Part shown: in pieces, positions 39,971 to 56,950 of the stretch
How positions within the stretch are numbered: position 1 is the stretch's first letter
Layout of the letters: each line of letters opens with the position of its first letter
NCBI GenBank assembly: GCA_016776925.1
Contig: JADHSL010000005.1
Span: 1 to 64,000, forward strand
DNA from: Pirellulales bacterium
GTDB lineage: Bacteria; Planctomycetota; Planctomycetia; Pirellulales; UBA1268
Length of the DNA: 64,000 nucleotides
Reading direction: 5' to 3'
Translations under genes and position numbers: made by a program
Notes under the pieces: generated by a model
Told to the model about the DNA's origin: nothing
Seen by the model: only the letters and a program-made list of their open reading frames with translations
The model's database searches: none

Positions 39971-40139
39971 CAGCATGGCCTCAGCCTGGGAGTGCCATGC
40001 CGGCCTGCTGGCGTCTACCCTACGGGTGAAAATTGAGTATTTGACCGAATTGCTCAGTCTAATTTCGATCATAGGCCGAATTCAAGCCACTTCCTTCATG
40101 AAAGCGTGCCGTCTGGAACTCAGCCAAAGCTCTAATGGA

Positions 40140-40169
40140 TTGACAAATGACAGAAAACACCGATATTTG
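40140..40169 (+). promoter_or_regulatory. Candidate sigma-70 promoter for rpsB
   Basis: A perfect -35 box TTGACA (40140-40145) is followed after 18 bases by TATTTG (40164-40169), a weak -10. It lies about 100 bases before the rpsB start in the ilvH-rpsB divergent region. The -10 match is poor, so the call is tentative. Confidence 0.38.
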
Positions 40170-40268
40170 CAGTACTCGCCGGATTTCATTATTGAATTTT
40201 GGCCAGTCGTACCACCCAATGCTGGTGTACGGATTTCTCAGATACCAACAGAAAGTGAACCTCTTACC

Positions 40269-41069
40269 GTGTCGAATGTCCTCGCTCAAGAATTAATCGA
40301 AGCTGGTGTCCACTTTGGCCATCGCTCGAGTCGCTGGAATCCAAAAATGCGGCCCTACATATTTGGCCGCAAAAACCTTATTCACATCATTGACGTCCGC
40401 GAAACAATTCGTGGTCTTTTACGTGGTAAGAAGTACCTGAAGCAAGTTGCTGCAACAGGCAGCCTTGTTTTGTTCGTTGGAACAAAACGACAAGGACAAG
40501 AAGCCATTGCACGTGAAGCCAATCGCTGTGGAATGCCCTACGTAAGTGAGCGATGGCTTGGTGGCACACTGACTAATTTCCGAACGATTCGTAATCGATT
40601 GGCTCGGCTTGAGGAACTGGAGGAATTACTTCCTTCTGATGCCTTCCATAACTATTCCAAGAAAATGCAGTCTTCGTTGCGACGAGAGCACAGAAAAATG
40701 CTCCGTAATCTTGGTGGTATTCGCACACTTTCCCGACTACCAGAATGTCTGGTTATCTTTGATCCAAAGAAAGAAAAGAACGCGATCAATGAAGCTCGAA
40801 AGATGGGAATCACGACCGTCGCTCTTATTGATACCGATTGCGACCCGGACGTCGTTGATCTTCCTATTCCTGGTAATGATGATTCCATTCGCTCAATCGA
40901 ACTCGTCGCTTCTCGGCTGGCTGATGCCATCCTCGAAGGCAAGGCGGACGTCGCGGAGAAAAAACAGTCAAAGGATGAGGGTGCCAGTTCGGAAACCAAA
41001 CCTGCGAAGCCTGCACCAAAAGCTCGCGGGAATGTCACACCACCTTCTCCAAATCCTGCAAAAACCTGA
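40269..41069 (+). CDS. rpsB: 30S ribosomal protein S2
   Basis: 266 residues from the GTG at 40269. The frame is open far upstream, but the family N-terminus ([20 protein letters not shown]) begins here. S2 blocks are [48 protein letters not shown] and [20 protein letters not shown]. The C-terminal tail is Lys/Pro/Ser-rich. It binds the small subunit at the head-body junction. It is followed by an attenuator-like hairpin and then tsf, the usual rpsB-tsf order. Confidence 0.95.
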
Positions 41070-41071
41070 CC

Positions 41072-41103
41072 CACGAGACCGCGTAACCGGTCTTGTGCTT
41101 TTG
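41072..41103 (+). terminator. Attenuator-like terminator between rpsB and tsf
   Basis: CACGAGACCG (41072-41081) pairs with CGGTCTTGTG (41088-41097) as a ten-base stem with one G-U pair and a six-base loop, followed by CTTTTG. It starts three bases after the rpsB stop. The position recalls the known partial terminator between rpsB and tsf of other bacteria, which lowers tsf relative to rpsB transcription. Confidence 0.6.
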
Positions 41104-41218
41104 TAGCTACAAGAGGACGTGTGTACTCGGTTCCGAACGTCACACCACACTCCTTCGACGAGTCGACTCATTTTGCTTTTCAACACAATCTCTCACACGA
41201 CATGAGGACTTAAGAATA

Positions 41219-42067
41219 ATGGCAGCAGTCACAGCCGCCGCAGTAATGGCACTGCGAGAAAAAACCGGTTTACCAATGATGGAGTGCAAAAAAGCACTTA
41301 CTGAATGTGGTGGCGATACAGAACAAGCCGTTGAATGGCTGAGAAAACAAGGCGTCAAAACGCAAGCGATGCGAGCTGATCGTGAAACTTCGATGGGCCG
41401 GCTTGCCATCTATACTGACCTTGAAAAGGGTGTTGGGACTCTTGTCGAACTAAAATGTGAAAGTGCACCAGTAGCGGGCAGTCCTGATTTCATGGATTTC
41501 GTGAATGATATAGCGAAGACACTTGCTCTTGGATCTGGTGCCAATTCGCCAGAAGAACTCCTGGCCCAAAAAAGCCAAGCGCATCCTGATAAGACCCTTG
41601 GAGAGATCAAGGACGATCTATTCAATCGAATGCGAGAAGTTTTTGAACTCTCTCGAATCTGCCGTATCGATGCTCCCTGTGGCGGATACGCCCATCATGA
41701 TGGCTCAAAGGCAGCTCTTGTTGAGATCGCTGGTGAAACGGCTGGCCCACAAGCAGCAGAAGTTGCGAAGGACGTAGCAATGCATATTGTGGCACTCTCG
41801 CCGAAAGCGATTGTTAAAGAGGATCTGGATCAAGCAGTTGTTGATAAAGAACGTGAGATTCTGACAGAGGCTGCAAAGCAGGAAGGGAAGCCAGAAAATA
41901 TCATTCATAAAATGATTGAGGGCCGGCTTCGCAATTTCTTCAGCCAGTGTGTGCTCCTTGAGCAGCCTTTCGTAAAAGACGACAAACAGAGCGTTGGCAA
42001 ACTCTTGAAGAGTGCTGGCCTGAGCGTCAAACGAATGGAACATTGGAAAATCGGCAGTGGAGATTAA
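41219..42067 (+). CDS. tsf: Translation elongation factor Ts
   Basis: 282 residues from the ATG at 41219; the frame is open upstream, but the family start is AAVTAAAVMALREKTG with the TGLPMMECKKAL motif of the EF-Tu-contacting N-domain. The dimerisation and core regions follow (GTLVELKCESAPVAGSPDF, ALVEIAGETAGPQA), and the C-terminal QCVLLEQPFVKDDK motif is canonical. It exchanges GDP for GTP on EF-Tu. The 150-base gap after rpsB contains the hairpin. Confidence 0.95.
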   Translation: MAAVTAAAVMALREKTGLPMMECKKALTECGGDTEQAVEWLRKQGVKTQAMRADRETSMGRLAIYTDLEKGVGTLVELKCESAPVAGSPDFMDFVNDIAKTLALGSGANSPEELLAQKSQAHPDKTLGEIKDDLFNRMREVFELSRICRIDAPCGGYAHHDGSKAALVEIAGETAGPQAAEVAKDVAMHIVALSPKAIVKEDLDQAVVDKEREILTEAAKQEGKPENIIHKMIEGRLRNFFSQCVLLEQPFVKDDKQSVGKLLKSAGLSVKRMEHWKIGSGD

Positions 42068-42157
42068 TGTGTCGAGCGAATAGAAACGTGGCTCAACGTT
42101 TGATCTACCTCAACTTCCCCTCGGTTCTGAACATCCATTCAAAGTAAACTACATTTC

Positions 42158-42901
42158 ATGCCATCTGCTCCTTACCGTCGAGTGCTCTTAAAGCTTTCAG
42201 GAGAAAGCTTCTCTCATGCTGGTGAACGTGGTATTGCGATGGAAGAAGTTCTTCATATCGCGAACCAGACCGTTCAGGCGGCTGCTCGTGGAACACAACT
42301 GGCCGTTGTCATCGGTGGTGGCAACATTCTTCGAGGCGCTTCCTTCACTGCAGGGAACAGTGGTGTCCAGGAAGCAACAGCTCACTACATGGGCATGCTA
42401 GCAACCGTGATTAATGGCTTGGCACTGCAAGATGCAATCGAAACACTCGGTGTCGAAACTCGCTTGATGACTGCTATTCGAATGGACGGAGTTGCCGAAC
42501 CATACATTCGCCGCAGAGCCCGCCATCATCTCGACAAAGGTATCATTGTCATTCTGGCAGCAGGCACTGGGAGTCCATTTGTGACGACTGACACAGCCGC
42601 GGCTCAGCGTGCACTTGAACTGGAAGCGGATATCTTAATGAAAGCGACGCGTGTCGATGGAGTTTATTCAGATGACCCTGAGAAAAACCCTCATGCAGTC
42701 CTTTATCGCGATCTTACTTTTCAACAAGTTCGAGAACAGAATCTAAGAGTTATGGATGCAACTGCAATCTCACAATGCATGGAACACGACATGCCTATTC
42801 TCGTATTTAATTATCGTAAGGATGGCAATATTGAGCGAGCAGTTGCCGGTGAAAAGTGTGGCACGCTGGTAAGCAGCCGTGCCGAGGCTGCTTCGAGTTA
42901 G
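42158..42901 (+). CDS. pyrH: UMP kinase
   Basis: 247 residues, amino-acid-kinase fold: [11 protein letters not shown] with the phosphate-binding [34 protein letters not shown], and [17 protein letters not shown], with [18 protein letters not shown] near residue 165. It makes UDP from UMP. It sits in the conserved tsf-pyrH-frr order, and the whole is probably one transcription unit with rpsB. Confidence 0.96.
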
Positions 42902-43001
42902 CAAAAGCTTGCTTGCTGGTGGCAGGAGGGTGACAATCCGTGTCAACAAAAGGCCGTTTATAGAACCAGTTCGTCTTGTTTTGGGGTAAGGAGAAAAGAA
43001 A

Positions 43002-43562
43002 ATGGCAGCTGATGAAATTCTTCTTGGTGCAGAAGAACGGATGGAGAAAGCAGTCGATGTCTTTCGGAACTCACTCACTGGAATTCGTACCGGCCGTGCG
43101 AATCCAGGGCTCGTCGATTCATTACGAGCTGAAGTCTATGGATCACCTACTCCAATCAAATCTCTGGCGAATGTCGGGGCGCCCGAACCAAATCAGATCG
43201 TTATTCGACCATTCGACCCGGGAACAATTAAGGACATCGAAAAAGCAATTCAGTCAAGTGACCTAGGACTCAATCCTCAGAGTGATGGGAGGGTCATACG
43301 TATTATCATTCCATCACTTTCGACTGATGTTCGTAAGAAAATGACTGCTCGCATTAAAGAACTTGCAGAAGAAGCCCGTGTCTCAATCCGCAACGTACGA
43401 CGCGATGCAAACAAGGCTGCTGACGGTGAAAAAAGTAGTGGCGACATGACAGAAGATGATTGCAACGGCACGAAAGAAGATGTTCAGGATCTTACGAAAA
43501 AGTTCGAGGGCCAGGTAAGCGATCTTGCAAAAGCAAAAGAAACCGAAGTAATGGACGATTAA
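43002..43562 (+). CDS. frr: Ribosome recycling factor
   Basis: 186 residues with AAGGAGA-type site just upstream (GGGGTAAGGAG near 42982-42993). The helical RRF arms are clear: FRNSLTGIRTGRANPGLVD at the N-terminus, IVIRPFDPGTIKDIEKAI in the middle, and RKKMTARIKELAEEARVSIR followed by NVRRDANKAADGE. It splits post-termination ribosomes with EF-G. The three-system ABC cluster starts 22 bases later. Confidence 0.96.
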   Translation: MAADEILLGAEERMEKAVDVFRNSLTGIRTGRANPGLVDSLRAEVYGSPTPIKSLANVGAPEPNQIVIRPFDPGTIKDIEKAIQSSDLGLNPQSDGRVIRIIIPSLSTDVRKKMTARIKELAEEARVSIRNVRRDANKAADGEKSSGDMTEDDCNGTKEDVQDLTKKFEGQVSDLAKAKETEVMDD

Positions 43563-43583: not shown

Positions 43584-44588
43584 TTGAGTCAGACAAGCAC
43601 CCATATGACAACTTCCGACGTTACCATTCCCGTTCGGCTAACTAATATTGTTAAGCGATATGGACGACGAACTGTACTTGATGGTGTTTCAATCGATGTA
43701 ACTCCTGGGGTGACTGGTCTTGTTGGACCCAACGGTGCTGGTAAAAGCACTCTTGTCCGATCAATTCTTGGTCTTGTCCGGCTTGCAAGTGGTCAGGCAC
43801 GCGTATTTGGAAATGACCCATATCGGAAACCTCGTCGTGTTCGTCAGATTGTTGGCGTTGTTCCCGAAGATGAATGCACCATTCCGGGTTTATCTGGTGT
43901 TGAAATGGTTCGATATGCCGCCCGTCTGTCAGGTCTGCCAGGCACTGAGGCGCTTCGGAGATCCCACGAAGTGCTGGATTGGTGTGATGCTGGCCAAGAG
44001 CGTTATCGGCCGGTTGAAACACTCTCGGTCGGCACCCGACAAAAAGTCTCTTTTGCAGCAGCTATCGTTCATGATCCCGACATGGTGATTCTTGATGAAC
44101 CGACAAACGGTCTCGACCCAATTGAGCGGCGGGCAATGCTTGGCCGTCTCACCACTCTTGCCAAAGACCACGGGAAAACAATATTTGTTTCAACCCATGT
44201 TCTTCCTGACGTGCAAGCCATTTGCGACCGCGTTATTGTGCTTGCTCAGGGCCGTGTACAACTTGCAGGTACCATTGAAACACTTACAAAGCCTCCACAG
44301 CCTGAGCACCACCTAGCTGGTTCAGGCCCGCTTGAGCAACTTGCTACAAAACTTTCCGAGCGTGGTCTACCTGCTCGTGTAGAAGCAAATGAGACGGAAT
44401 CAATCATCTCCCTTGTATCACCAAAACCAGAAAACATCCGTGATGTCTGGTCTGCAGCAGCCGAAGTTGGGGTGAGTATTCGTTCCCTCGCACCAGCAAC
44501 TCGACCACTTGAAAAAATCTTTATCGATACACTGCGACGATCAGAACAACACCATGACCAACACAACACCACGCAGGGGGACCGCTAA
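43584..44588 (+). CDS. ABC transporter ATPase (first system)
   Basis: 334 residues from a TTG at 43584 with GGAGA just upstream; the ATG at 43605 is an alternative but has no site. Walker A GPNGAGKST, signature LSVGTRQK, Walker B MVILDEPTNGLD and switch STHVL are intact. The C-terminal 110 residues are an extension typical of ABC-2-type export ATPases. Its stop overlaps the start of the permease gene (TAATG), so it pairs with that permease. Cargo unknown. Confidence 0.88.
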   Translation: MSQTSTHMTTSDVTIPVRLTNIVKRYGRRTVLDGVSIDVTPGVTGLVGPNGAGKSTLVRSILGLVRLASGQARVFGNDPYRKPRRVRQIVGVVPEDECTIPGLSGVEMVRYAARLSGLPGTEALRRSHEVLDWCDAGQERYRPVETLSVGTRQKVSFAAAIVHDPDMVILDEPTNGLDPIERRAMLGRLTTLAKDHGKTIFVSTHVLPDVQAICDRVIVLAQGRVQLAGTIETLTKPPQPEHHLAGSGPLEQLATKLSERGLPARVEANETESIISLVSPKPENIRDVWSAAAEVGVSIRSLAPATRPLEKIFIDTLRRSEQHHDQHNTTQGDR

Positions 44589-45688
44589 TGCCACTGCAGG
44601 ATGTTGGTTATCGTGCTTGGAATAATGAGCGATGTGGTCCTTCTTCAACAATCTGGGTTATTGCTTGGACTGGGATTCGCCTGGCTTGGGAAAGCCGCTG
44701 GCTTCGTCGGATGGTCTTTTTCGCATGGAGCCCGGCACTTCTTTTTGCAGCTAGTTTCTTTGCATTTGAACAGGCCGTCGACGAAGGACGACTGGCCTCA
44801 CTTGGCACCGCTGCACAACGCGGTCGAAATCTTGATGGTATTGGGATGCTGGGTACCGTTCTTGCTGATGCACTAGGTGGCAATACCGATGAAGTGGATG
44901 TTGAAACAACCCGCCACCTTGTCTGGAGTCGTCTCTTATTAGCCTTCATGCGGGCGCCTCAGGCAATGCTTCTAGCGGCTGTCGTTGGCCTAGTTGCTCC
45001 AACACTGATTTCACGTGACTTAAGAGCAAAAGCATGGCTGATCTATTTCACGAGACCTGTGGGTCGCACAGAGTACATACTTGGCAAGTTCTTTATTCTC
45101 CTTTTGTTGGTTCTTGTTATCACCATGCTGCCGGCACTCGCACTATGGCTCACCGGCGTGCTTGTAAGTCCAAGCGTTTCAGTTGCATTTGAGACATGGG
45201 ATCTACCAATTCGAATTGTCACCGCAAGCTTCATTCTGGCCGTTCCAACAGTCTTGCTGGCACTTGCTTATTCATCACTCACAACTGAAAGTCGAATTGC
45301 TAGTTTTGCATGGTTCGCAACGTGGGTTGCATGCTGGATTGCACATGGTGCTCTCACAACGGCAGATCTTGTTGCCAGCACACAAGATGGTGGCGTTTAT
45401 TCGATGGAAGGGACGCAAGAAGAGGAGGCGTCCCGTAGCCCAAAAGCAAAAGTCTCTCCGATCCGGCGCAACTTCCGTTGGTTTGCCCGTGCTGCGGGCA
45501 TCGATGCCACGCTCGATCGATGGGCTTGGGTCTCTCCATATCATGCACTTGGTGCCGTCCAAGCGGCGATATTTGGAATTGATACAAGCCCACGTTCTTG
45601 GTGGCCATCATCAATGACATTGCTTGTAATGAGTGCTGGCAGTTTATGTATTCTCGCCTGGAGGATAACCGCTCCTGCGTCGAGTTAA
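44588..45688 (+). CDS. ABC-2 family permease (first system)
   Basis: 366 residues, polytopic. Hydrophobic segments are near residues 35-60 (FAWSPALLFAASFFAF), 120-140, 165-190 (FFILLLLVLVITMLPALALW), 210-235, 240-260 and at the C-terminus. A charged loop at about 275-300 contains EEEASRSPKAK. The start overlaps the ATPase stop by one base, indicating translational coupling. Cargo not readable. Confidence 0.8.
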   Translation: MPLQDVGYRAWNNERCGPSSTIWVIAWTGIRLAWESRWLRRMVFFAWSPALLFAASFFAFEQAVDEGRLASLGTAAQRGRNLDGIGMLGTVLADALGGNTDEVDVETTRHLVWSRLLLAFMRAPQAMLLAAVVGLVAPTLISRDLRAKAWLIYFTRPVGRTEYILGKFFILLLLVLVITMLPALALWLTGVLVSPSVSVAFETWDLPIRIVTASFILAVPTVLLALAYSSLTTESRIASFAWFATWVACWIAHGALTTADLVASTQDGGVYSMEGTQEEEASRSPKAKVSPIRRNFRWFARAAGIDATLDRWAWVSPYHALGAVQAAIFGIDTSPRSWWPSSMTLLVMSAGSLCILAWRITAPASS

Positions 45689-45715: not shown

Positions 45716-46642
45716 ATGCTTTCTCTCCAGAACGTAACAAAGCTCTACGGCACTGTCATTGGTGTCAATGATGTCTCGGCAGAACTTGGGCAGGGGGCTC
45801 ATGGACTTCTTGGTCCAAATGGTGCAGGAAAAACAACGCTGCTCGGACTCATAACTGGGCAGCTCCGCCCCACTATTGGATCTGTAAATGTTTTTGGTGA
45901 GGCTCCTTTTGGAAACAGGCGAATTCTTTCCCGAATTGGATACTGTCCAGCCGCTGACCTCACAGAACGTAATGCGACACCACGGGAATGGGTCACATAC
46001 CTCATGCGATTAAGTGGCTTTGACGCCGCCGAAGCTCCCCGAAGAGCTGCACGTGCTCTCGACGAAGTCGGCCTTGGTGAGGCATGCACCCGTCCACTGT
46101 CAACACTTTCCAAAGGCATGCGACAACGTGCAAAACTAGCTGGTGCATTTGCACATGATCCAGACCTACTGGTCCTCGATGAGCCATTTGATGGCCTCGA
46201 TCCTGTTGCCCGGCATGACCTTGTTCATCTCGTGCGAATGTGGTCTCAAACTAGAAGTCTCATCGTAGCGAGCCACCTACTCCATGAAGTAGAAGCCCTA
46301 CGAGCTGATCTCGCTGTCATCCTTGGAGGACGACTCGTTGCCAACGGTTCCGCATCCGAAATCCGTGAGCTTGTCGATGCGTTGCCTACAGAGGTCAAAT
46401 TCAAAACATCATCTGTCGACAAACTTGCTCAGTTGGCGTGTGGAGCTGGTGTTGTGGAAACACTCTATATACCTAATGAAGACACACTTATTATCGGCAC
46501 CAGACAAGCCGGTCGTCTTGCAGACATGGTTGCCAAAGCCGTTCATGACGGTCTAGTTGTCCGTGAAGTCATTGCTGAAGACAGAACACTCGAAGGCATT
46601 TTCAGTCGGCTGATGAAACTACACCGGGGAGTTGAGCAGTGA
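45716..46642 (+). CDS. ABC transporter ATPase (second system)
   Basis: 308 residues. Walker A GPNGAGKTT, signature LSKGMRQRAKLAGA, Walker B LLVLDEPFDGLDP and switch histidine in ASHLLHEVE are intact. A C-terminal domain of about 90 residues follows the ATPase core. It overlaps the following permease by four bases (GTGA). It is similar in layout to the first system, which suggests duplication. Confidence 0.88.
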   Translation: MLSLQNVTKLYGTVIGVNDVSAELGQGAHGLLGPNGAGKTTLLGLITGQLRPTIGSVNVFGEAPFGNRRILSRIGYCPAADLTERNATPREWVTYLMRLSGFDAAEAPRRAARALDEVGLGEACTRPLSTLSKGMRQRAKLAGAFAHDPDLLVLDEPFDGLDPVARHDLVHLVRMWSQTRSLIVASHLLHEVEALRADLAVILGGRLVANGSASEIRELVDALPTEVKFKTSSVDKLAQLACGAGVVETLYIPNEDTLIIGTRQAGRLADMVAKAVHDGLVVREVIAEDRTLEGIFSRLMKLHRGVEQ

Positions 46643-47466
46643 AAGATTCCCCACAAACAGCTGATGCTTATGATCTCCCACACGGCCGTCCTCCTGAAGG
46701 GAATAATTTTGCAGCCATTCGGGCAGTCACAGGCTTTCAGCTCAATCGGTTAATGACGAAACCTCGCATTGCTATGGGTCTGGTTGGTGCTCTTTTTCCT
46801 GCTGCAGTAATGTTCGCTGTTATTCGTACGGCGCCGATCAACCGAGACATGACTGTTGCCATGATTTACGCACTCATTCCTGAGGCTCTTTGTGTCCTTG
46901 GGCTCCTTGTAACAATGTGTCCGGTTGTTGCAGATGAGCTTGAGCGCGGAACATGGATTCATGTGACCGTACGGCCGGGTGGCCGACAAAGTCTGCTTTT
47001 GGGCACATTCGCAGCTGCAGTCATTTGGACAGGAGGTGTTTCTCTCGTATCCCTTATGCTGACGCTCCTTATTGCCCAACCAACTCAGCCAATTGGACTT
47101 GTTGTGATGTTTACCGTCCTCATTGGAATATCCTGTATTGGGCGGGCCGCCTTATTTGCTGTTCCAGCTGTTATTCTGCCAAAGCGGGCCCTTATTGCCA
47201 GCGTTGGAGTTGCCTTGGTCGTTGAGTATTTTGCCGGTCTACTACCGGCTGTTGTGAATCAAGTTACAGTCAGCTTACGACTACGCAGTCTGCTCGTTGA
47301 ATGGATGGCATGGCGTAAAGATCTACCCATCGAAATGACTCTTTTCGTGGATGATTATTCAGCACCCGTCCAGATAGCGGCTGTTTGTATTCTAGTATGC
47401 ATACTCCTTACAACTGCTGGATTTATTCTCAACCGCCGACAGTTTCCACCAAGTGTAGAGAACTGA
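46639..47466 (+). CDS. ABC-2 family permease (second system)
   Basis: 275 residues from a GTG overlapping the ATPase stop. About six hydrophobic segments are seen: GLVGALFPAAVMFAVI near 45, ALIPEALCVLGLLVTM near 85, TFAAAVIWTGGVSLVSLML near 120, LVVMFTVLIGISCIG, VGVALVVEYFAGLLPAVV and a C-terminal AAVCILVCILLTTAGF. It is the export channel partner of the ATPase upstream. Confidence 0.8.
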   Translation: MKDSPQTADAYDLPHGRPPEGNNFAAIRAVTGFQLNRLMTKPRIAMGLVGALFPAAVMFAVIRTAPINRDMTVAMIYALIPEALCVLGLLVTMCPVVADELERGTWIHVTVRPGGRQSLLLGTFAAAVIWTGGVSLVSLMLTLLIAQPTQPIGLVVMFTVLIGISCIGRAALFAVPAVILPKRALIASVGVALVVEYFAGLLPAVVNQVTVSLRLRSLLVEWMAWRKDLPIEMTLFVDDYSAPVQIAAVCILVCILLTTAGFILNRRQFPPSVEN

Positions 47467-47469
47467 TTG

Positions 47470-48240
47470 ATGGACAGAACACCCATAGACATGAATGATT
47501 CAGTCATCCAAATCAAAAACCTTGTAAAGGAATATAAGGGTAGTGATGGAACGATCGTTCGGGCTGTGAACAACGTCTCGATGTCTGTTGCCGCTGGCGA
47601 AATTGTTGGCTTACTCGGTGCAAATGGTGCCGGGAAAACTACAACTCTTCGTATGATTGCAACTCTCCTGCAGCCAACATCTGGTCATGCGCAGGTCTGT
47701 AATCATGACAGTATCACCGACCCTGTCGGAGTACGACAGTCGCTTGGCTATGTATCAGCCACAACTGGTGTGCCTGATCGTCTGACGGCACGTGAATTAC
47801 TCACTTCTTTTGGTCGGCTTCATGGTCTTGAAGAAGACACTATCAAAGACCGTCTCGAATGGCTTATTACGACACTCTCTCTACGTGATTACATAGATCG
47901 TCCTGCGGGAAGGCTTTCTTCCGGACAGCGCCAACGAATTTCTCTCGGCAGGGCACTCGTCCATAACCCCCCGGCACTTGTTTTAGACGAACCAACAAAT
48001 GCTCTCGATGTTGTAGGTTCGCGTGACCTGCTTGACACACTTGATCATCTTCGAGAAAGCGGACATGCGATCTTGTTATCAACACATCGCCTGCATGAAA
48101 TTGAACATCGATGCGATCGATTTGTCATCATTGACACAGGGCACATTGTCGCCGCAGGCACGCGCGATGAACTCGTTGGAGATTCTGGAGAGCTTGAAGA
48201 TGCCTTTTTTCATGCCATTGAGAAGGGGGCACATACATGA
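47470..48240 (+). CDS. ABC transporter ATPase, NatA-like (third system)
   Basis: 256 residues from the ATG at 47470. Walker A GANGAGKTT, signature LSSGQRQRISLGRAL, Walker B ALVLDEPTNALDV and switch STHRLHEIEHR are intact. It resembles NatA, the ATPase of the Na+-extruding NatAB family, and overlaps by four bases (ATGA) the permease-containing fusion gene, so the two products are made together. Confidence 0.87.
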   Translation: MDRTPIDMNDSVIQIKNLVKEYKGSDGTIVRAVNNVSMSVAAGEIVGLLGANGAGKTTTLRMIATLLQPTSGHAQVCNHDSITDPVGVRQSLGYVSATTGVPDRLTARELLTSFGRLHGLEEDTIKDRLEWLITTLSLRDYIDRPAGRLSSGQRQRISLGRALVHNPPALVLDEPTNALDVVGSRDLLDTLDHLRESGHAILLSTHRLHEIEHRCDRFVIIDTGHIVAAGTRDELVGDSGELEDAFFHAIEKGAHT

Positions 48241-51200
48241 ATCGTAATGCCAATCCTCTTAGGGCTGCCTTAGCACTCGCTCGTCGTGATTTACTTGAAT
48301 TCTTGCGAGATCGAAGAACGGTTGCTGTCACACTCCTTTTACCAATGATCACATATCCGCTGGTCGCCCTATCAAGTTCTCTTGGTGTTCGGACTGGCTT
48401 AAAAACAACTGAAGAACGACAGTCAGCAACACCGCTGTCGCTTGTTCTCAGTGGACCGGAAGCTCCTCGTTTAGCAACTCGTCTCGGGATGGTTCTTCTC
48501 GCTGCAGAAGACAATGAGCCATCCGGATGGCCGAGTGATGTCTTCGCTGAAATTGAACCGCCACGAAAAGCAAAGGAACTCCTTGAATCTGGAAAAGTTG
48601 ATCTGTGGATTAACGTTCCGAATGGATTCACAAAAGAGCTGAAAAAATTCAATACAGTCAATCTAACTGCTCATGTTTCTGACAAGTATCCTGCAAGTGA
48701 AAAAACACGCTCGCAGTTTGAATCTCTCATTGAAAGCTTCGCAACACAGGTGCGTGAAGAACGAATGGGGGTTGCCGGAGTTCCCATAAGTCTTTTTGAT
48801 CCCATTAAGTTGATGTTCGAAGGAAAAGATCCAGAGGCCGTAGTTGCTGACCGAAGAATCATGGCTCCGGTTGCAGGAGCAATCCTCGTACTACTTTCTG
48901 TCCTGACAATGACTGGGTCTTTCTATCCCGCTATTGATGCCATTGCTGGTGAGAAAGAACGGGGCACCATCGAAACACTTCTCATCGTGCCGTGTCGAAC
49001 GCAAGATATTGTCTTCGGCAAGTATCTTGCCATTTTTGGAGTCACACTTGCTACTCTTGCCGCCAATGTCATTTCAATTCTTCTTACGATTCTTGTCTCT
49101 CTGAAATATTTTCCAGATGGTTCTACCGATTATTACCTGCAAAATATTGGACTGGGATCTCTGATAACCCTTCTTTCATTTATTGGTCTTTCATCAGTAG
49201 CATCAGCGATGAGTCTTGCTGTAACAACTGCTTCAAAAAGTATGAAAGAAGCACAAAACACACTGACTCCTGTCATCCTACTTATCAGTGCACTTGCAGG
49301 AGTGTCGCTCATACCTGGAATCAGCCAGAATCGACTTGTGCCCATGGTGCCCTACACGGGTCAGATTGTTGTTTCACAGAACGCCCTGACACCTCCACCC
49401 ACGAAACAGGAAGTTATTTCTAAATCGAACCAAACTGACGGAGAGTCGTCTTCCGTCATGATGAGTCCAATCGCCAGTATTTCGCCACTCCTGCTGACAC
49501 TCTTTTCAAGCGTTGCAGTGACTTGGGTACTCCTTCGTGGAACAACAGCAATGCTGACCGACGAAGACCTCCTGTTTCGTGGACCAGATGCCGCAAGTGG
49601 TTTTAGCCGTCCTGCACCTCGACTGATACCTGGGATTATCCATGGTGGCATTGCCCTTGTGCTTGGCCTTGCTGGTCTTTGGTATGTCCAAGGGCTCAGC
49701 CCAGAAAGCATTATCTTTGCAATACCCGTTCAACAACTCGCCGTTGTCGCTCCTCTAGCCATTCTTCTCTTGTGGCAACGGGTAAATATCAAAAGAACTT
49801 TTTCTCTTTACTGGCCAGGGTGCGGATTGAGTTGGCGATCTTTTCTCGGTGGCCTCAGTGCACTGATTGGTGGCCTCCTGACTGGTGGTGGACTTTTTAT
49901 TCTTGGTGCTGCCGTCCTCTTGCAGCTGACAACGATTGAAATGTCACCGGCAATGAAACAACTCTCCGAGAAGATACTTTCTCTCATGCTTGACCAACCC
50001 TGGTGGCTCGCCTGGGCTCTCATCGCAATACTTCCAGCATGCTTGGAAGAACTTCTTTTTCGTGGATGGGTCCTCTCTGCATTTTGTGGTGAGAAACCCA
50101 GTAAACAACGAATGGCTATTGCTGTTTTTGCCCAAGCTATTTGCTTTGCAATCTTCCATCTTCTCCCTGAACGGATGCCACAGACATTTCTTCTTGGCCT
50201 CGCACTTGGAACAATCGTTCTTCTGACGAAGAGCATCTACCCCGCAATACTGTGTCACATTGCAAATAACTCGATGCCGCTTCTTCTGCTCTATATGACT
50301 GGAATTCAAGACAAGGAATCTCTCCCCGAATCCGTGGCAACTGATGTAACCACTCTATCGCTACCGCCAGAGGCCATTGCCGCAGCAGGGGGCACCGTTG
50401 TACTCGGTGGAATTCTTCTTGTTGTTTCCAACAAACTTCGAATGCGCTGTTCCTTGGCCAGAATCGCAACATTGATCCTGCTAACGATCTCTTGTTTTTC
50501 CAACAGTCAATCGAACCACCTACTGGCCCAAGAACCAACAACACAAAAAACAACTCAGCCGTTACAAGTTGGAGTTTTTCCGATGAAGGGGCTTGCCGAA
50601 TATGGCGGAGAAAAACCTCGTGGCTACTCCATTGATCTTTGGAATGAATTGTCAAAACGTATCAATGTACCGGCAGAGTTGATTGCAATATCGTCGATTG
50701 AGAAGCTTTTTGCTGCTACTCAAAATGGTGATATTGACGTGCTTCTTGGTCCACTCGCAATGACAGAACAGCGAGAGAAGTTGGTTGACTTCACACATCC
50801 CGTTGTGCATTCAGGGCTGCAGATCGCTGTTCCCCGTGAGCCTGATGGCCGTCTGCTTACAGCTCTCAATAACTTGATCTCATGGGAATTAGTATCCATC
50901 CTTGCTGGAGTGATCGGGACGATAGTCTTGACCGGACACCTTCTCTGGATTTTCGAACGACGTCATAATGCCGAATCATTCCCGACTCCTTACCCCCGCG
51001 GCGCCTGGGAAGCTGTTTGGTGGAGCGTAAGTACAATCATCACTGGTGGCTGTGAAAATAAAGTAATTTCGACTGTTACTGGAAGATTTATAGCAACCGC
51101 ATCGATGATTGGTGGCATTGTCCTTGTTGCACTTCTCACCAGCACTCTCACTACGACCATGACTGTTGATCAGGTAACCGGCACCATACGGAGCCCTCGT

Positions 51201-51554
51201 GACCTCTTCGGCAAGACCGTCGCCTGTCAAGAAGGTGGTGTTGTTGTTGTTGCAGTGGAAGAGTTTGGGGGCAGCCCCATACTCTATCCGGATCTTGAAG
51301 CCATGGTGGCCGCTGTTTCAAGCGAGGAATGCGATGCACTGGTCTCTGAATCACACACGCTCATGCTTGCTTTGCATACTTCTAAATCAAAAGACCTTCG
51401 ACTGATTCCGGGCATCTTTGATTCGTTTGACTTCGCGCTCGCACTTCCACAAGGAAGCACACTGCGTGAGCCACTGAACAACGCAATCTTACAGATGCGT
51501 GAAGCAGGACGACTCGATGAAATCAAAGAACGTTGGTTCGGTGAACACAACTAG
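48237..51554 (+). CDS. NatB-like ABC permease / CPBP protease-like / glutamate-receptor-like triple fusion
   Basis: 1105 residues in one uninterrupted frame. Residues 1 to about 445: NatB-type ABC-2 permease (LARRDLLEFLRDRRTVAVTL, a large outer loop, then six helices). About 455-735: CPBP/CAAX-protease-like membrane domain with EELLFR (Glu604, Glu605, Arg609), FAIFH (His641) and HIANN (His674, Asn678). 736-760: a second signal-like hydrophobic segment. About 776-1105: ionotropic-receptor-like module with S1 binding lobe (LGPLAMTEQREKLVDFTHP, Arg846), TM1 (883-905), pore helix WWSVSTII, TM2 (948-970) and S2 lobe. The potassium-filter position reads ITGGCENK, not TVGYGD. The permease-CPBP fusion is known in planctomycetes; the receptor module on its end appears unusual. 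Role inferred: ligand-sensing exporter. Confidence 0.85.
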   Translation: MNRNANPLRAALALARRDLLEFLRDRRTVAVTLLLPMITYPLVALSSSLGVRTGLKTTEERQSATPLSLVLSGPEAPRLATRLGMVLLAAEDNEPSGWPSDVFAEIEPPRKAKELLESGKVDLWINVPNGFTKELKKFNTVNLTAHVSDKYPASEKTRSQFESLIESFATQVREERMGVAGVPISLFDPIKLMFEGKDPEAVVADRRIMAPVAGAILVLLSVLTMTGSFYPAIDAIAGEKERGTIETLLIVPCRTQDIVFGKYLAIFGVTLATLAANVISILLTILVSLKYFPDGSTDYYLQNIGLGSLITLLSFIGLSSVASAMSLAVTTASKSMKEAQNTLTPVILLISALAGVSLIPGISQNRLVPMVPYTGQIVVSQNALTPPPTKQEVISKSNQTDGESSSVMMSPIASISPLLLTLFSSVAVTWVLLRGTTAMLTDEDLLFRGPDAASGFSRPAPRLIPGIIHGGIALVLGLAGLWYVQGLSPESIIFAIPVQQLAVVAPLAILLLWQRVNIKRTFSLYWPGCGLSWRSFLGGLSALIGGLLTGGGLFILGAAVLLQLTTIEMSPAMKQLSEKILSLMLDQPWWLAWALIAILPACLEELLFRGWVLSAFCGEKPSKQRMAIAVFAQAICFAIFHLLPERMPQTFLLGLALGTIVLLTKSIYPAILCHIANNSMPLLLLYMTGIQDKESLPESVATDVTTLSLPPEAIAAAGGTVVLGGILLVVSNKLRMRCSLARIATLILLTISCFSNSQSNHLLAQEPTTQKTTQPLQVGVFPMKGLAEYGGEKPRGYSIDLWNELSKRINVPAELIAISSIEKLFAATQNGDIDVLLGPLAMTEQREKLVDFTHPVVHSGLQIAVPREPDGRLLTALNNLISWELVSILAGVIGTIVLTGHLLWIFERRHNAESFPTPYPRGAWEAVWWSVSTIITGGCENKVISTVTGRFIATASMIGGIVLVALLTSTLTTTMTVDQVTGTIRSPRDLFGKTVACQEGGVVVVAVEEFGGSPILYPDLEAMVAAVSSEECDALVSESHTLMLALHTSKSKDLRLIPGIFDSFDFALALPQGSTLREPLNNAILQMREAGRLDEIKERWFGEHN

Positions 51555-53640: not shown

Positions 53641-55089
53641 GTGAGTGAAGACACTGCCAATCAATCTACTACACGCCCTTCTGCATATTCACTCGATGCA
53701 AGTCTTGGCTGTATTAGTATCGGAATTGCAACAGCCAGCTTTATTCACATGCTCTCCTTTCCGTGGTGGATGAGCATGATCACCGGACAGCTCCTTCTGG
53801 CCGCAACCTTACTTCTTTTGTTTTTTCCACGATCTATTCTTGTCCTCTGTCTTTTTCTTCTCTCCAGTCTCACGTTCTGGTTCCAAAGACTTCCCTTTGT
53901 GCCAAATCATATTTTTTTTGAAATGCTCATACATGCCTCCATGATAGGTACGGTTCTTGCCGTCACTGCATGCAATTGGAAGAAACGCCTACCGTCTGTC
54001 GAACTTCGTGCAGCCATTTATGAGCAGATGCGCCCTGTCATAATGAGTTCCTTGATCATCATGTATCTCTTCACTGTGCTGCATAAGTTGAATTGGGACT
54101 TTCTCAACCCTGCGGTCAGTTGTGCTGTATCCATGCACAAAGAGCTTGCTGCATCAGTGCCCATCATTCCATCAAGCGAATGGACACAGTGGCCGACCAT
54201 CATCGGGACGCTTCTCATTGAGCTTGCCATTCCAATTGGCCTCTGGTGGCGCACAACACGGGTTGCCACTGTCATTCTTGGGCTTCTCTTCCACTGGTTT
54301 CTTGCACTTCACCCACATGGAGGCATCTATAGCTTTTCCCACCTGCTCTACGCGCTGTATACCGTTTTTCTTTTTTCATCTCACGACAATCCATTTCAGG
54401 TCTGGCAACGAATGCCGAAGTTCGGTGTTCTTGCCGCAAAGTTAGCTGCCGTATTCATCTTTGGACTTGCCTGCTTTTTGCAGATTCGTGCATATCGAAC
54501 TGGTGGCAGTTTTTTTACTGCCAATGCTATTGGGTTTTATGCATGGCTTCTATTCGCTTTGTGGCTGACAGCCACATACGCGCCGATGCTCCGTAAGGCT
54601 GGCTGGCGAAGTGCACCGGTACCTATGGTTCGCCCTTTGCGAATCCTCTGGATATTCCCAGCTCTCGTTTTCTTCAATGGGTACTGCCCGTACCTCAGCC
54701 TCAAAACAACAACAGCTTTTTCGATGTTCGCAAACATACGAACCGAAGGAACCGGAAACAATCATCTCTTCATGCATCGGCTGAAACTTTTTGGATATCA
54801 GGATGATCTTGTTGAGGTTCTTGGATCGAATGACCGGCAACTGCAACAATACGTGAAGACGAAGGACCTTCTCACCTGGTTCGAACTTCGAAGGATCACC
54901 TCTTCCCGGAAGCGGGAAAACCTTTTTGTAGAATACAAGCGGTCGAAAGATCCTGAGGATATTCTTTTCAAAAAGAAAGGTGCGCCGAAAGACGCTGAAC
55001 TCTTAAAGCCACATCCTTGGTACCTCTCACGATTTCTTGTTTTTCGTGCGATCGGTAGACTCGACAAACCAATGCCGTGCAGACACTAG
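53641..55089 (+). CDS. HTTM-like polytopic membrane protein
   Basis: 482 residues from the GTG at 53641 (TTG at 53623 is an alternative). About ten hydrophobic segments in the first 360 residues. The YLFTVLHKLNWDFLNP segment and GLWWRTTRVATVILGLLFHWFLALHPHGG-like region (given here in parts: LLFHWFLALHPHGG) recall the HTTM domain related to vitamin-K-dependent gamma-carboxylase. The C-terminal 110 residues are a soluble charged domain. The function of bacterial HTTM proteins is largely unknown. Confidence 0.68.
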   Translation: MSEDTANQSTTRPSAYSLDASLGCISIGIATASFIHMLSFPWWMSMITGQLLLAATLLLLFFPRSILVLCLFLLSSLTFWFQRLPFVPNHIFFEMLIHASMIGTVLAVTACNWKKRLPSVELRAAIYEQMRPVIMSSLIIMYLFTVLHKLNWDFLNPAVSCAVSMHKELAASVPIIPSSEWTQWPTIIGTLLIELAIPIGLWWRTTRVATVILGLLFHWFLALHPHGGIYSFSHLLYALYTVFLFSSHDNPFQVWQRMPKFGVLAAKLAAVFIFGLACFLQIRAYRTGGSFFTANAIGFYAWLLFALWLTATYAPMLRKAGWRSAPVPMVRPLRILWIFPALVFFNGYCPYLSLKTTTAFSMFANIRTEGTGNNHLFMHRLKLFGYQDDLVEVLGSNDRQLQQYVKTKDLLTWFELRRITSSRKRENLFVEYKRSKDPEDILFKKKGAPKDAELLKPHPWYLSRFLVFRAIGRLDKPMPCRH

Positions 55090-55111
55090 CACGTTACCTT
55101 TAAAAAGAATC

Positions 55112-56950
55112 ATGCCTGAACCTACTTCATCGAAAACAATTGCTCGCAGACATGATCTTGATGCCCTTCGGGCCGTCGCAATGCTTCTTGGCATCGTGCT
55201 TCATGGATTAATGCCATTCATGCCTGGGTTATCTGTGATTCGTGACACACAAACAGCGGGATGGGTATGGATTCTCTTTCTTGGTATTCATGGTGTTCGG
55301 ATGCCGTTGTTCTTTCTTGTCAGTGGTTTTTTTACTGCCATGCTTTGGCACAAACGTGGCGTACAAAGCATGCTCCGGCAACGAAGCGTGCGAATTCTTT
55401 TGCCATGTCTTCTTGGCACTGTCACTATTGTTCCGCTCGATACTTATGTCGGCCGGTGGGCTACCAATTACGGCAAGAGAATTGCAGAGAAGAAGCAGTC
55501 GGCTGAAAGCAAGGAAAAGCCAGACAACCTCTACGATGCAATTCGCCGCAGTGACTTTTTGACGGTGAAGTCGTTTCTGGACAAAAAGAAGGTTGGTATC
55601 AACACTCCTGATCCAGAGTTCAAAATGCCACCACTCCACATTGCTGCACTCTACGGTAAAACCAAAGTGGCTGAACTTCTTTTGAATCGCGGCGCGAACG
55701 TTCAACAACGAGACGATGGGAATCGTACAGCACTACATGGTGCCGCCTTCCTTGGTCGCGTGGGTGTTGTCAGGCTCTTACTGGATCGCGGCATCGATGT
55801 CAGTGTTCGGGGAGATGATGATGATACAGCGATGGATTCAACAAATGCGGACTGGGAGATGACTCAGGGTATCGCTTCTTGGCTGAGAGTACCGGAGCTC
55901 GACCAGAAACGGGTTGAATCGGGCCGGGAACGTGTACGAAATCTTCTTCGTGAGGCTGGAACACCTTCTCAGCAGGACTCATCAAATTCAGAAAATAGTG
56001 TTGATACTTCTCAGGAAAAAGACGCTGGCACCCTTCAACAATCTCGTTTCAAGCAGACTCTTGAGGCCATTCGTTCCGGATACGCCGGCTGGCTCAAATC
56101 GGACCGGTTTCAAACAGCTTTCAAAAAGAGCGATAAAAAAGAATCACGTGATCAAGGTATCTTTGGAAATCTCAAACCTCGTCATCTGATCTTTTCACGT
56201 GTGTTTGATCACCTCTGGTTCCTATGGTTTTTATGTTGGCTTATTCCCTTATTTGTCTGTGCCGAGTCACTCCTTCGCTGCTTTGGAATTTCCGTTGAAA
56301 AGCAATGGCCTTTTCGGCTCAATGCATCCATCTGGTGGATGGTTCCAGTCACACTTCTTCCACAACTACTCATGGGTACGATGACACCCAGAATGCACTT
56401 TGGACCGGATACAAGTCTTGGGCTTCTTCCACAGCCTCATCTTCTTGTGTACTACGCCATCTTCTTTGGGTTCGGCATGTCGGTATTCATCTCGGGTGAA
56501 AAAGCTGAAAGGCTTGGTCGTTGGTGGCCCTGGCATCTTCTTGGAGCTTGTCTTTGTTTTCCTGCCGCCCTCGCCACCATGGCCAATCCAGTCGTCACTG
56601 CAGTTCCACAGATACTTTTTGCATGGTTGATGTGTTTTGGATTCATTGGAATGTTCCGAAGATGGTTCTCAGCGGAAAGTAGAGTCATGCGCTATGTTTC
56701 TGACTCGTCCTACTGGCTCTATCTGATGCACATCCCCCTTGTGATCACACTCGCATGCTTGATGCAAACATGGAAGCTTCCAATCTTTCTAAAGCTCAGC
56801 ATGATCTGTACGGGTACAACATTGATTCTGCTTGTGACCTATCAACTGTTTGTTCGATATACATGGATTGGACGTATGCTCCACGGGCCGCGAGACAGGG
56901 GAGATCGTATTCATAGACATCGAGAATCAATGCCTGGCACGTCTGCCTGA
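55112..56950 (+). CDS. Acyltransferase-3 family membrane protein with inserted ankyrin repeats
   Basis: 612 residues from the ATG at 55112. The first part has the acyltransferase-3 start RRHDLDALRAVAMLLGIVLH and RMPLFFLVSGFF, where His and Arg are family-conserved. After a further hydrophobic segment (PCLLGTVTIVPLDTYV) comes a soluble insert, about 138-350, holding ankyrin-type repeats (PPLHIAALYGKTKVAELLLNRG and TALHGAAFLGRVGVVRLLLDRG, each split over two lines of repeat) and a charged linker. The remaining TM helices follow (HLWFLWFLCWLIPLFV to SSYWLYLMHIPLVITLAC). Likely O-acylates an envelope glycan; the ankyrin insert probably binds a partner protein. Confidence 0.82.
   Translation: MPEPTSSKTIARRHDLDALRAVAMLLGIVLHGLMPFMPGLSVIRDTQTAGWVWILFLGIHGVRMPLFFLVSGFFTAMLWHKRGVQSMLRQRSVRILLPCLLGTVTIVPLDTYVGRWATNYGKRIAEKKQSAESKEKPDNLYDAIRRSDFLTVKSFLDKKKVGINTPDPEFKMPPLHIAALYGKTKVAELLLNRGANVQQRDDGNRTALHGAAFLGRVGVVRLLLDRGIDVSVRGDDDDTAMDSTNADWEMTQGIASWLRVPELDQKRVESGRERVRNLLREAGTPSQQDSSNSENSVDTSQEKDAGTLQQSRFKQTLEAIRSGYAGWLKSDRFQTAFKKSDKKESRDQGIFGNLKPRHLIFSRVFDHLWFLWFLCWLIPLFVCAESLLRCFGISVEKQWPFRLNASIWWMVPVTLLPQLLMGTMTPRMHFGPDTSLGLLPQPHLLVYYAIFFGFGMSVFISGEKAERLGRWWPWHLLGACLCFPAALATMANPVVTAVPQILFAWLMCFGFIGMFRRWFSAESRVMRYVSDSSYWLYLMHIPLVITLACLMQTWKLPIFLKLSMICTGTTLILLVTYQLFVRYTWIGRMLHGPRDRGDRIHRHRESMPGTSA

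What the first reader, a model, noticed from the sequence alone, without database searches (positions are those of the whole stretch)
48237..51554. ABC-2 permease, CPBP protease-like domain and ionotropic-receptor-like module in one protein
Seen: one 1105-residue frame with no stop or frameshift, holding a NatB-type permease, a CPBP domain with EExxxR, FxxxH and HxxxN motifs intact, and a full S1-TM1-pore-TM2-S2 receptor module. Known: permease-CPBP fusions occur in planctomycetes, and GluR0-type receptors are normally separate proteins. Inference: a ligand sensor or channel is physically tied to an exporter and possible protease, and is co-translated with its ATPase. This is the best candidate here for an undescribed system.
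Basis: partly seen in the sequence, partly recalled or inferred. Interest (0 to 1): 0.9.

Follow-up and report, generated by a model that had tools for sequence, protein, structure and literature searches.

The report
One gene, exporter plus receptor channel
In one family of planctomycete bacteria a single gene encodes an ABC exporter with a protease-like domain followed, after a predicted internal signal peptide, by a relative of animal glutamate receptors, so the product is likely cut into two proteins: an exporter and a predicted amino-acid-gated channel whose pore motif resembles that of animal receptors rather than the potassium type of other planctomycete relatives.

Summary
The 1105-residue frame is real and no assembly accident. 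The same permease / CPBP / receptor order recurs in many database proteins and crosses the junction stop-free in 27 of 72 genomes of its family.

That the receptor stays physically tied to the exporter is doubtful. In 20 of the 72 genomes the same two proteins are adjacent separate genes, in 4 unlinked, and in 14 only one was found. The receptor tree needs four fused/split changes. Fused genes keep what split receptors have at their N-termini: a basic stretch, a short hydrophobic core and a signal-peptidase-like site. Residue 764 there is A or G in 107 of 112 proteins. In the window plus its 19 nearest relatives the linker falls to 22% identity, yet A764 is invariant.

Best reading: a precursor predicted to be cleaved into exporter-CPBP and a free receptor. 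Ligand-contact Arg and Glu are kept; the filter reads GGC[DE][ND]K where 16 of 17 distant planctomycete receptors carry TVGYGD, so a cation channel not selective for potassium is predicted. CPBP catalytic residues are invariant. Cleavage, gating, ion and substrate are untested.

The parts
43584..44588 (+). ABC ATPase A1 of the same gene cluster
   Evidence: ORF; ABC ATPase matches in NCBIfam, all below curated cut-offs; same place in relatives
44588..45688 (+). ABC-2 permease M1
   Evidence: PF12679 33.3 bits, cut-off 27.2; same place in relatives
45716..46642 (+). ABC ATPase A2
   Evidence: same place in relatives
46639..47466 (+). M2, presumed membrane partner of A2; no Pfam or NCBIfam match
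   Evidence: conserved in the cluster; role inferred from position only
47467..48240 (+). ABC ATPase A3, presumed motor of the fused permease; its stop overlaps the start of the fused gene
   Evidence: PF00005 107.9 bits; directly upstream of the permease wherever that flank was held
48237..51554 (+). fused gene: ABC-2 permease - CPBP - signal-peptide-like segment - ionotropic-receptor module
48237..49556 (+). ABC-2 permease module with extracytoplasmic domain (residues 1-440)
   Evidence: PF12698, PF12679; helices and strands of the model
49629..50441 (+). CPBP/Rce1-like module (residues 465-735) with E604 E605 R609 H641 H674 N678
   Evidence: PF02517 68.8 bits, cut-off 22.4; residues identical in 112 of 112
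50442..50528 (+). internal signal-peptide-like segment (residues 736-764), predicted cut after A764
   Evidence: A or G at 764 in 107 of 112, A in 20 of 20 nearest; hydrophobicity like the N-termini of standalone receptors
50562..50846 (+). ligand-binding half S1 (residues 776-870) with R846
   Evidence: PF00497; R846 in 111 of 112; fold match of S1+S2 to the Nostoc GluR0 core 2pyy
50883..51170 (+). M1 - pore loop - M3 (residues 883-978)
   Evidence: PF00060 42.3 bits, cut-off 30.8; helices in both models
51045..51062 (+). pore-loop filter motif, G937-G-C-E-N-K942
   Evidence: C939 and K942 in 112 of 112 fused proteins; C in 111 of 111 standalone-length relatives
51195..51545 (+). ligand-binding half S2 (residues 987-1103) with E1038
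   Evidence: PF00497; E1038 in 112 of 112

Best explanation
The gene encodes an ABC exporter permease with a CPBP protease-like domain and an ionotropic-glutamate-receptor-like module in one reading frame, and its product is likely cut by signal peptidase I after residue 764 into two separate membrane proteins. The C-terminal product would then be a bacterial ionotropic receptor (S1-M1-pore-M3-S2) that binds an amino acid in the periplasm and, as a tetramer, opens a cation pore that is not potassium-selective. The N-terminal product would pair with the ATPase encoded just upstream (47467-48240) as an exporter carrying a probably active CPBP intramembrane protease domain. Shown here: the single frame, the conserved modules and residues, the conserved signal-peptide-like junction, and the fused, split and one-partner states among relatives. 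Inferred: the cleavage, tetramer assembly, ligand, ion and exporter substrate. Polyprotein coding and neighbouring-gene coding would do the same job, making the two proteins together in a set ratio, which would explain why the boundary switches between fused and split.
Against: Ala-rich linkers hold an A-x-A by chance: 109 of 112 observed against 85.1 expected from shuffles, 17 of 18 against 13.7 for representatives; the gap is clear only in the window's own group, 18 of 20 against 8.8. Five of 112 have neither A nor G at 764. No dedicated signal-peptide or topology predictor was available. In the ATPase-permease-CPBP tree the fused genus g271 does not nest among split genomes, so the order of fusion and fission is unsure. 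In 11 of 111 standalone-length relatives the ligand Arg is Trp, so the amino-acid ligand is not universal. The M3 motif of animal receptors (SYTANLAAF, recalled) is only weakly matched. No current has been recorded from any member.
Confidence: 0.6

Rival explanations
1. True tethered receptor-exporter: the internal segment is an uncleaved signal anchor, and ligand binding by the receptor module controls the exporter or the CPBP domain within one polypeptide.
For: One unbroken frame in 27 of 72 family genomes; adjacency in 20 more, all on the same strand; an extra membrane crossing is needed to put S1 outside, and the segment could supply it.
Against: Nothing in an anchor asks for A or G at residue 764, yet it is conserved in 107 of 112 while the linker drifts. 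Split, unlinked and one-partner genomes exist. Low confidence between modules: pTM 0.47, linker pLDDT below 50.
Confidence: 0.25
2. The receptor module no longer conducts; it is a periplasmic ligand sensor that kept the channel's membrane part as an anchor or dimer interface.
For: The potassium filter is gone and no electrophysiology exists for the family.
Against: The pore loop is among the most conserved parts: W928, W929, S932, C939, K942, G949 and R950 are identical in 112 of 112; a dead pore would be expected to drift.
Confidence: 0.25
3. The CPBP domain, not signal peptidase I, cuts the neighbouring internal segment in cis, so the precursor processes itself.
For: The catalytic residues are invariant and the domain lies directly before the segment; CPBP relatives such as myxosortase cut near membrane helices (PMC11980579, passages seen).
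Against: 11 family genomes have the permease-CPBP gene without a receptor, and the same permease-CPBP order without receptor occurs in other planctomycetes, so CPBP has another job; the site follows the signal-peptidase -3/-1 rule.
Confidence: 0.1
4. Neutral read-through fusion of two neighbouring genes with no functional link between the products.
For: Genomes with only one partner exist (3 receptor only, 11 permease only, of 72).
Against: The pair is kept, fused or adjacent, in 49 of 72 family genomes (counting G456 and G414), across deep divergence, and several fused/split changes have kept it together.
Confidence: 0.2

Closest known systems
Bacterial ionotropic glutamate receptors: GluR0 of Synechocystis and Nostoc; 'Group 2' of Ger et al. 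2010 (PMC2950845)
   Different: No TVGYG filter, unlike GluR0 and that paper's Group 1; its 10 Group 2 channels also lack a recognised filter. Here the module is joined to an exporter. 'Planctomyc' and 'CPBP' do not occur in that paper's main text.
Animal AMPA receptors (GluA1-4)
   Same: Whole LBD-pore module aligns; filter GGCE(N)K lines up with QQGCDIS of GluA4; Foldseek top hits are GluA LBD-TMD structures.
   Different: About 20% identity; no N-terminal domain, no M4; whether the shared GC-acid motif is convergent was not tested.
NCBIfam NF041647 ABC transporter permease subunit/CPBP intramembrane protease
   Same: Same permease-CPBP order over residues 1 to about 680; 367.1 bits.
   Different: Below the curated cut-off of 435; a receptor follows.
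NatAB-type ABC exporters (Bacillus subtilis)
   Same: ABC-2 permease with an extracytoplasmic domain plus a separate ATPase; some database homologues are named 'Na+ efflux pump permease subunit' or 'sodium transport system permease protein'. NatAB is listed as sodium exporter with a large extracellular domain in PMC11466899 (passages seen).
   Different: CPBP and receptor added; sodium export untested here.
FbcH cytochrome b/c1 precursor of Bradyrhizobium (recalled; no held paper found)
   Same: One gene, two membrane proteins, separated at an internal signal peptide.
   Different: Respiratory complex; unrelated proteins.

Membership tests
Ionotropic glutamate receptor family (bacterial branch) | S1 - M1 - pore loop - M3 - S2 order | tested here: met
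   PF00497 split around PF00060; models
Ionotropic glutamate receptor family (bacterial branch) | Conserved ligand Arg in S1 and acidic residue in S2 | tested here: met
   R846 111/112, E1038 112/112 in fused proteins; in 111 standalone-length relatives R 99, W 11, gap 1
Ionotropic glutamate receptor family (bacterial branch) | Ligand-binding core fold | tested here: met
Ionotropic glutamate receptor family (bacterial branch) | Ligand-gated current through a tetramer | not testable with these tools
   needs electrophysiology
GluR0-type potassium-selective receptor | TVGYG-type potassium filter in the pore loop | tested here: not met
   GGC[DE][ND]K-type filter: C939 and K942 in 112 of 112
NF041647 ABC_perm_CPBP | Score over the curated cut-off | tested here: not met
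   367.1 against 435 bits
CPBP/Rce1 glutamic intramembrane protease | EExxxR, FxxxH and HxxxN residues | tested here: met
   identical in 112 of 112; Rce1-like 68.8 bits over cut-off 22.4
CPBP/Rce1 glutamic intramembrane protease | Proteolytic activity | not testable with these tools
   no assay
Signal peptidase I substrate (internal signal peptide) | Basic n-region, short h-region, small residues at -3 and -1 | tested here: met
   the shuffle control is weak for Ala-rich members
Signal peptidase I substrate (internal signal peptide) | Cleavage in cells | not testable with these tools
   no N-terminal proteomics held
NatAB sodium exporter | Sodium export | not testable with these tools
   needs transport assay; the permease-CPBP part matches no solved structure by sequence

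The most novel reading that the evidence does not exclude
A pump-and-channel polyprotein: one bacterial gene makes, in fixed ratio, an amino-acid-gated non-potassium cation channel with an AMPA-like GC[DE] filter, which changed from a potassium filter within Planctomycetes independently of animals, together with the ABC exporter that restores what the channel lets in; a chemical signal is read as an ion pulse and reset by the co-made pump.
Probability: 0.2. Interest if true: 0.88.

Novelty: new variant of a known kind. Interest (0 to 1): 0.62.

Why it matters
If the precursor is cleaved, it is a natural bacterial membrane polyprotein whose gene boundary opens and closes in evolution while the signal peptide is kept, which can be tested with one tagged construct. 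It also offers bacterial receptors whose filter departs from the potassium type within one phylum, so the step from a potassium-selective ancestor to a non-selective glutamate receptor, inferred for animals, could be studied by comparing neighbours. Coupling an ionotropic receptor to an ABC exporter gene would be a first clue to what bacterial ionotropic receptors are for.

Tried and rejected
Assembly or frameshift artefact: rejected, independent assemblies agree. Internal re-start of translation at M736: rejected, position 736 is M in 3 of 20 nearest sequences. Lipoprotein-type cut at C753: C in 13 of 112, so not a family feature. Other C-terminal fusions of permease-CPBP in the phylum: the 12 long open frames inspected end soon after CPBP and hold no receptor. 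The permease-CPBP part has no sequence match among solved structures, and the whole-model fold searches listed receptor-part matches only, so its fold was not tested. Shuffled-linker control: gives little in Ala-rich members. Tree of ATPase-permease-CPBP: does not place g271 inside the split clade. In one search only two candidates per genome were scored, so the absence of other full fusions in 391 further phylum genomes is a sample result. Missing partners in MAGs (51-97% complete) may be incompleteness. Literature: no paper on this coupling in searches (open-licence library only).

Full report
The observation. The frame 48237-51554 is intact and holds ABC-2 permease, CPBP/Rce1-like, and S1-M1-pore-M3-S2 modules above Pfam cut-offs. 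A protein search returned 379 proteins at E up to 0.001, of which 120 were listed; most of these are full-length three-part proteins. I aligned the window with the 111 listed proteins of at least 1070 residues. Contigs named as Planctomycetaceae or Pirellulales carry the same gene. The window's genome has this one copy and no other Lig_chan match.

Distribution. In 392 genomes drawn evenly from the phylum, 274 had some match but only the window's genome showed a match over the whole protein; others match the permease-CPBP part or the receptor part at about 25-35% identity (two candidates scored per genome). In the window's own family, 72 genomes, I counted from the listed matches: 27 with one stop-free match across the junction (G000, G398-G403, G408, G410, G412, G413, G415-G423, G453-G455, G457-G459, G461); G456 fused but broken within S1; 20 with two adjacent genes (L118-L137), one of them (G442) with an in-frame stop in the receptor; G414 frame-broken at the junction; G406, G407, G429 and G431 with both genes apart (G431 judged alone); G392, G424, G440 with the receptor only; G396, G397, G404, G405, G409, G411, G436, G439, G444, G446, G462 with the permease only; G425, G450, G460 cut by contig ends; G393, G447 with neither. 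These are MAGs of 51-97% completeness, so some absences may be gaps.

Gene cluster. In the window six genes run head to tail: ATPase-permease, ATPase-M2, ATPase-fused gene. Fused loci with enough flank keep all six; of the 20 split loci one (L118) keeps them, 13 with 7 kb or more of upstream sequence do not, and 6 are too short to tell.

The junction. Split receptors begin with ordinary signal peptides. Fused proteins keep one inside: after the last CPBP helix comes a basic stretch (net charge +1 or more in 108 of 112), a core of about ten hydrophobic residues, and a site. In the window it reads ...SLARIATLILLTISCFSNSQSNHLLA|QEPTT. Column 764 is A in 95 and G in 12 of 112. Over the genus-level set of 20 the linker falls to 22-29% identity in the five most distant members, yet A764 is fixed; only L734 at the linker's edge is equally fixed. 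Shuffling the part after the core shows that mere presence of a site is weak evidence in Ala-rich proteins (109 of 112 against 85.1) and better in the window's group (18 of 20 against 8.8); I rest the case on the conserved column, the hydrophobicity profile and the split relatives. The AlphaFold model leaves 736-772 unstructured (mean pLDDT 74.0, pTM 0.47).

History. On a receptor tree rooted with eight distant receptors the fused/split label needs four changes, and five fused genomes of genus g271 sit inside a clade of split genomes (96/90 and 100/99 support); holding all fused rows together is rejected at p 0.030. The tree of the other half needs five changes for the fused label but does not nest g271 there. 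Either way the boundary has changed more than once.

The exporter and CPBP. Catalytic residues are invariant; activity is untested. Names such as 'Na+ efflux pump permease subunit' attached to some homologues are annotations only.

How it would work. One translation product inserts; the internal signal peptide re-enters Sec and is cut, giving exporter-CPBP and receptor in 1:1 ratio; the receptor assembles as a tetramer and responds to a periplasmic amino acid. Everything from 'inserts' on is inference. The tethered alternative remains possible at about one in four.

Noticed in passing
P0174, P0181, P0192, P0195, P0201, P0207, P0218, P0227, P0229, P0234, P0235: In 11 of 111 standalone-length receptors the ligand-contact Arg (R846) is Trp in an otherwise intact S1: a ligand change or loss.
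   Followed up: partly
L160, L162, L165, L166: Other genomes of the order carry two neighbouring receptor genes, one with a TVGYGD filter and one reading LLLGHKG: possibly partners in mixed channels.
   Followed up: partly
window 55037-56950: An acyltransferase-3 protein with ankyrin repeats lying between two parts of the acyltransferase match.
   Followed up: no
window 39975-43562: Upstream frames read by eye like ribosomal protein S2, elongation factor Ts, UMP kinase and ribosome recycling factor (recalled, not searched), directly before the ABC cluster.
   Followed up: no
L122 (G442), L102 (G456), L115 (G414): Three relatives with a broken receptor or junction: an in-frame stop, a break within S1, and a frame change at the junction; decay or MAG errors.
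   Followed up: partly
window 46639-47466: M2 has no Pfam or NCBIfam match but keeps its place between ATPases A2 and A3 in relatives.
   Followed up: no
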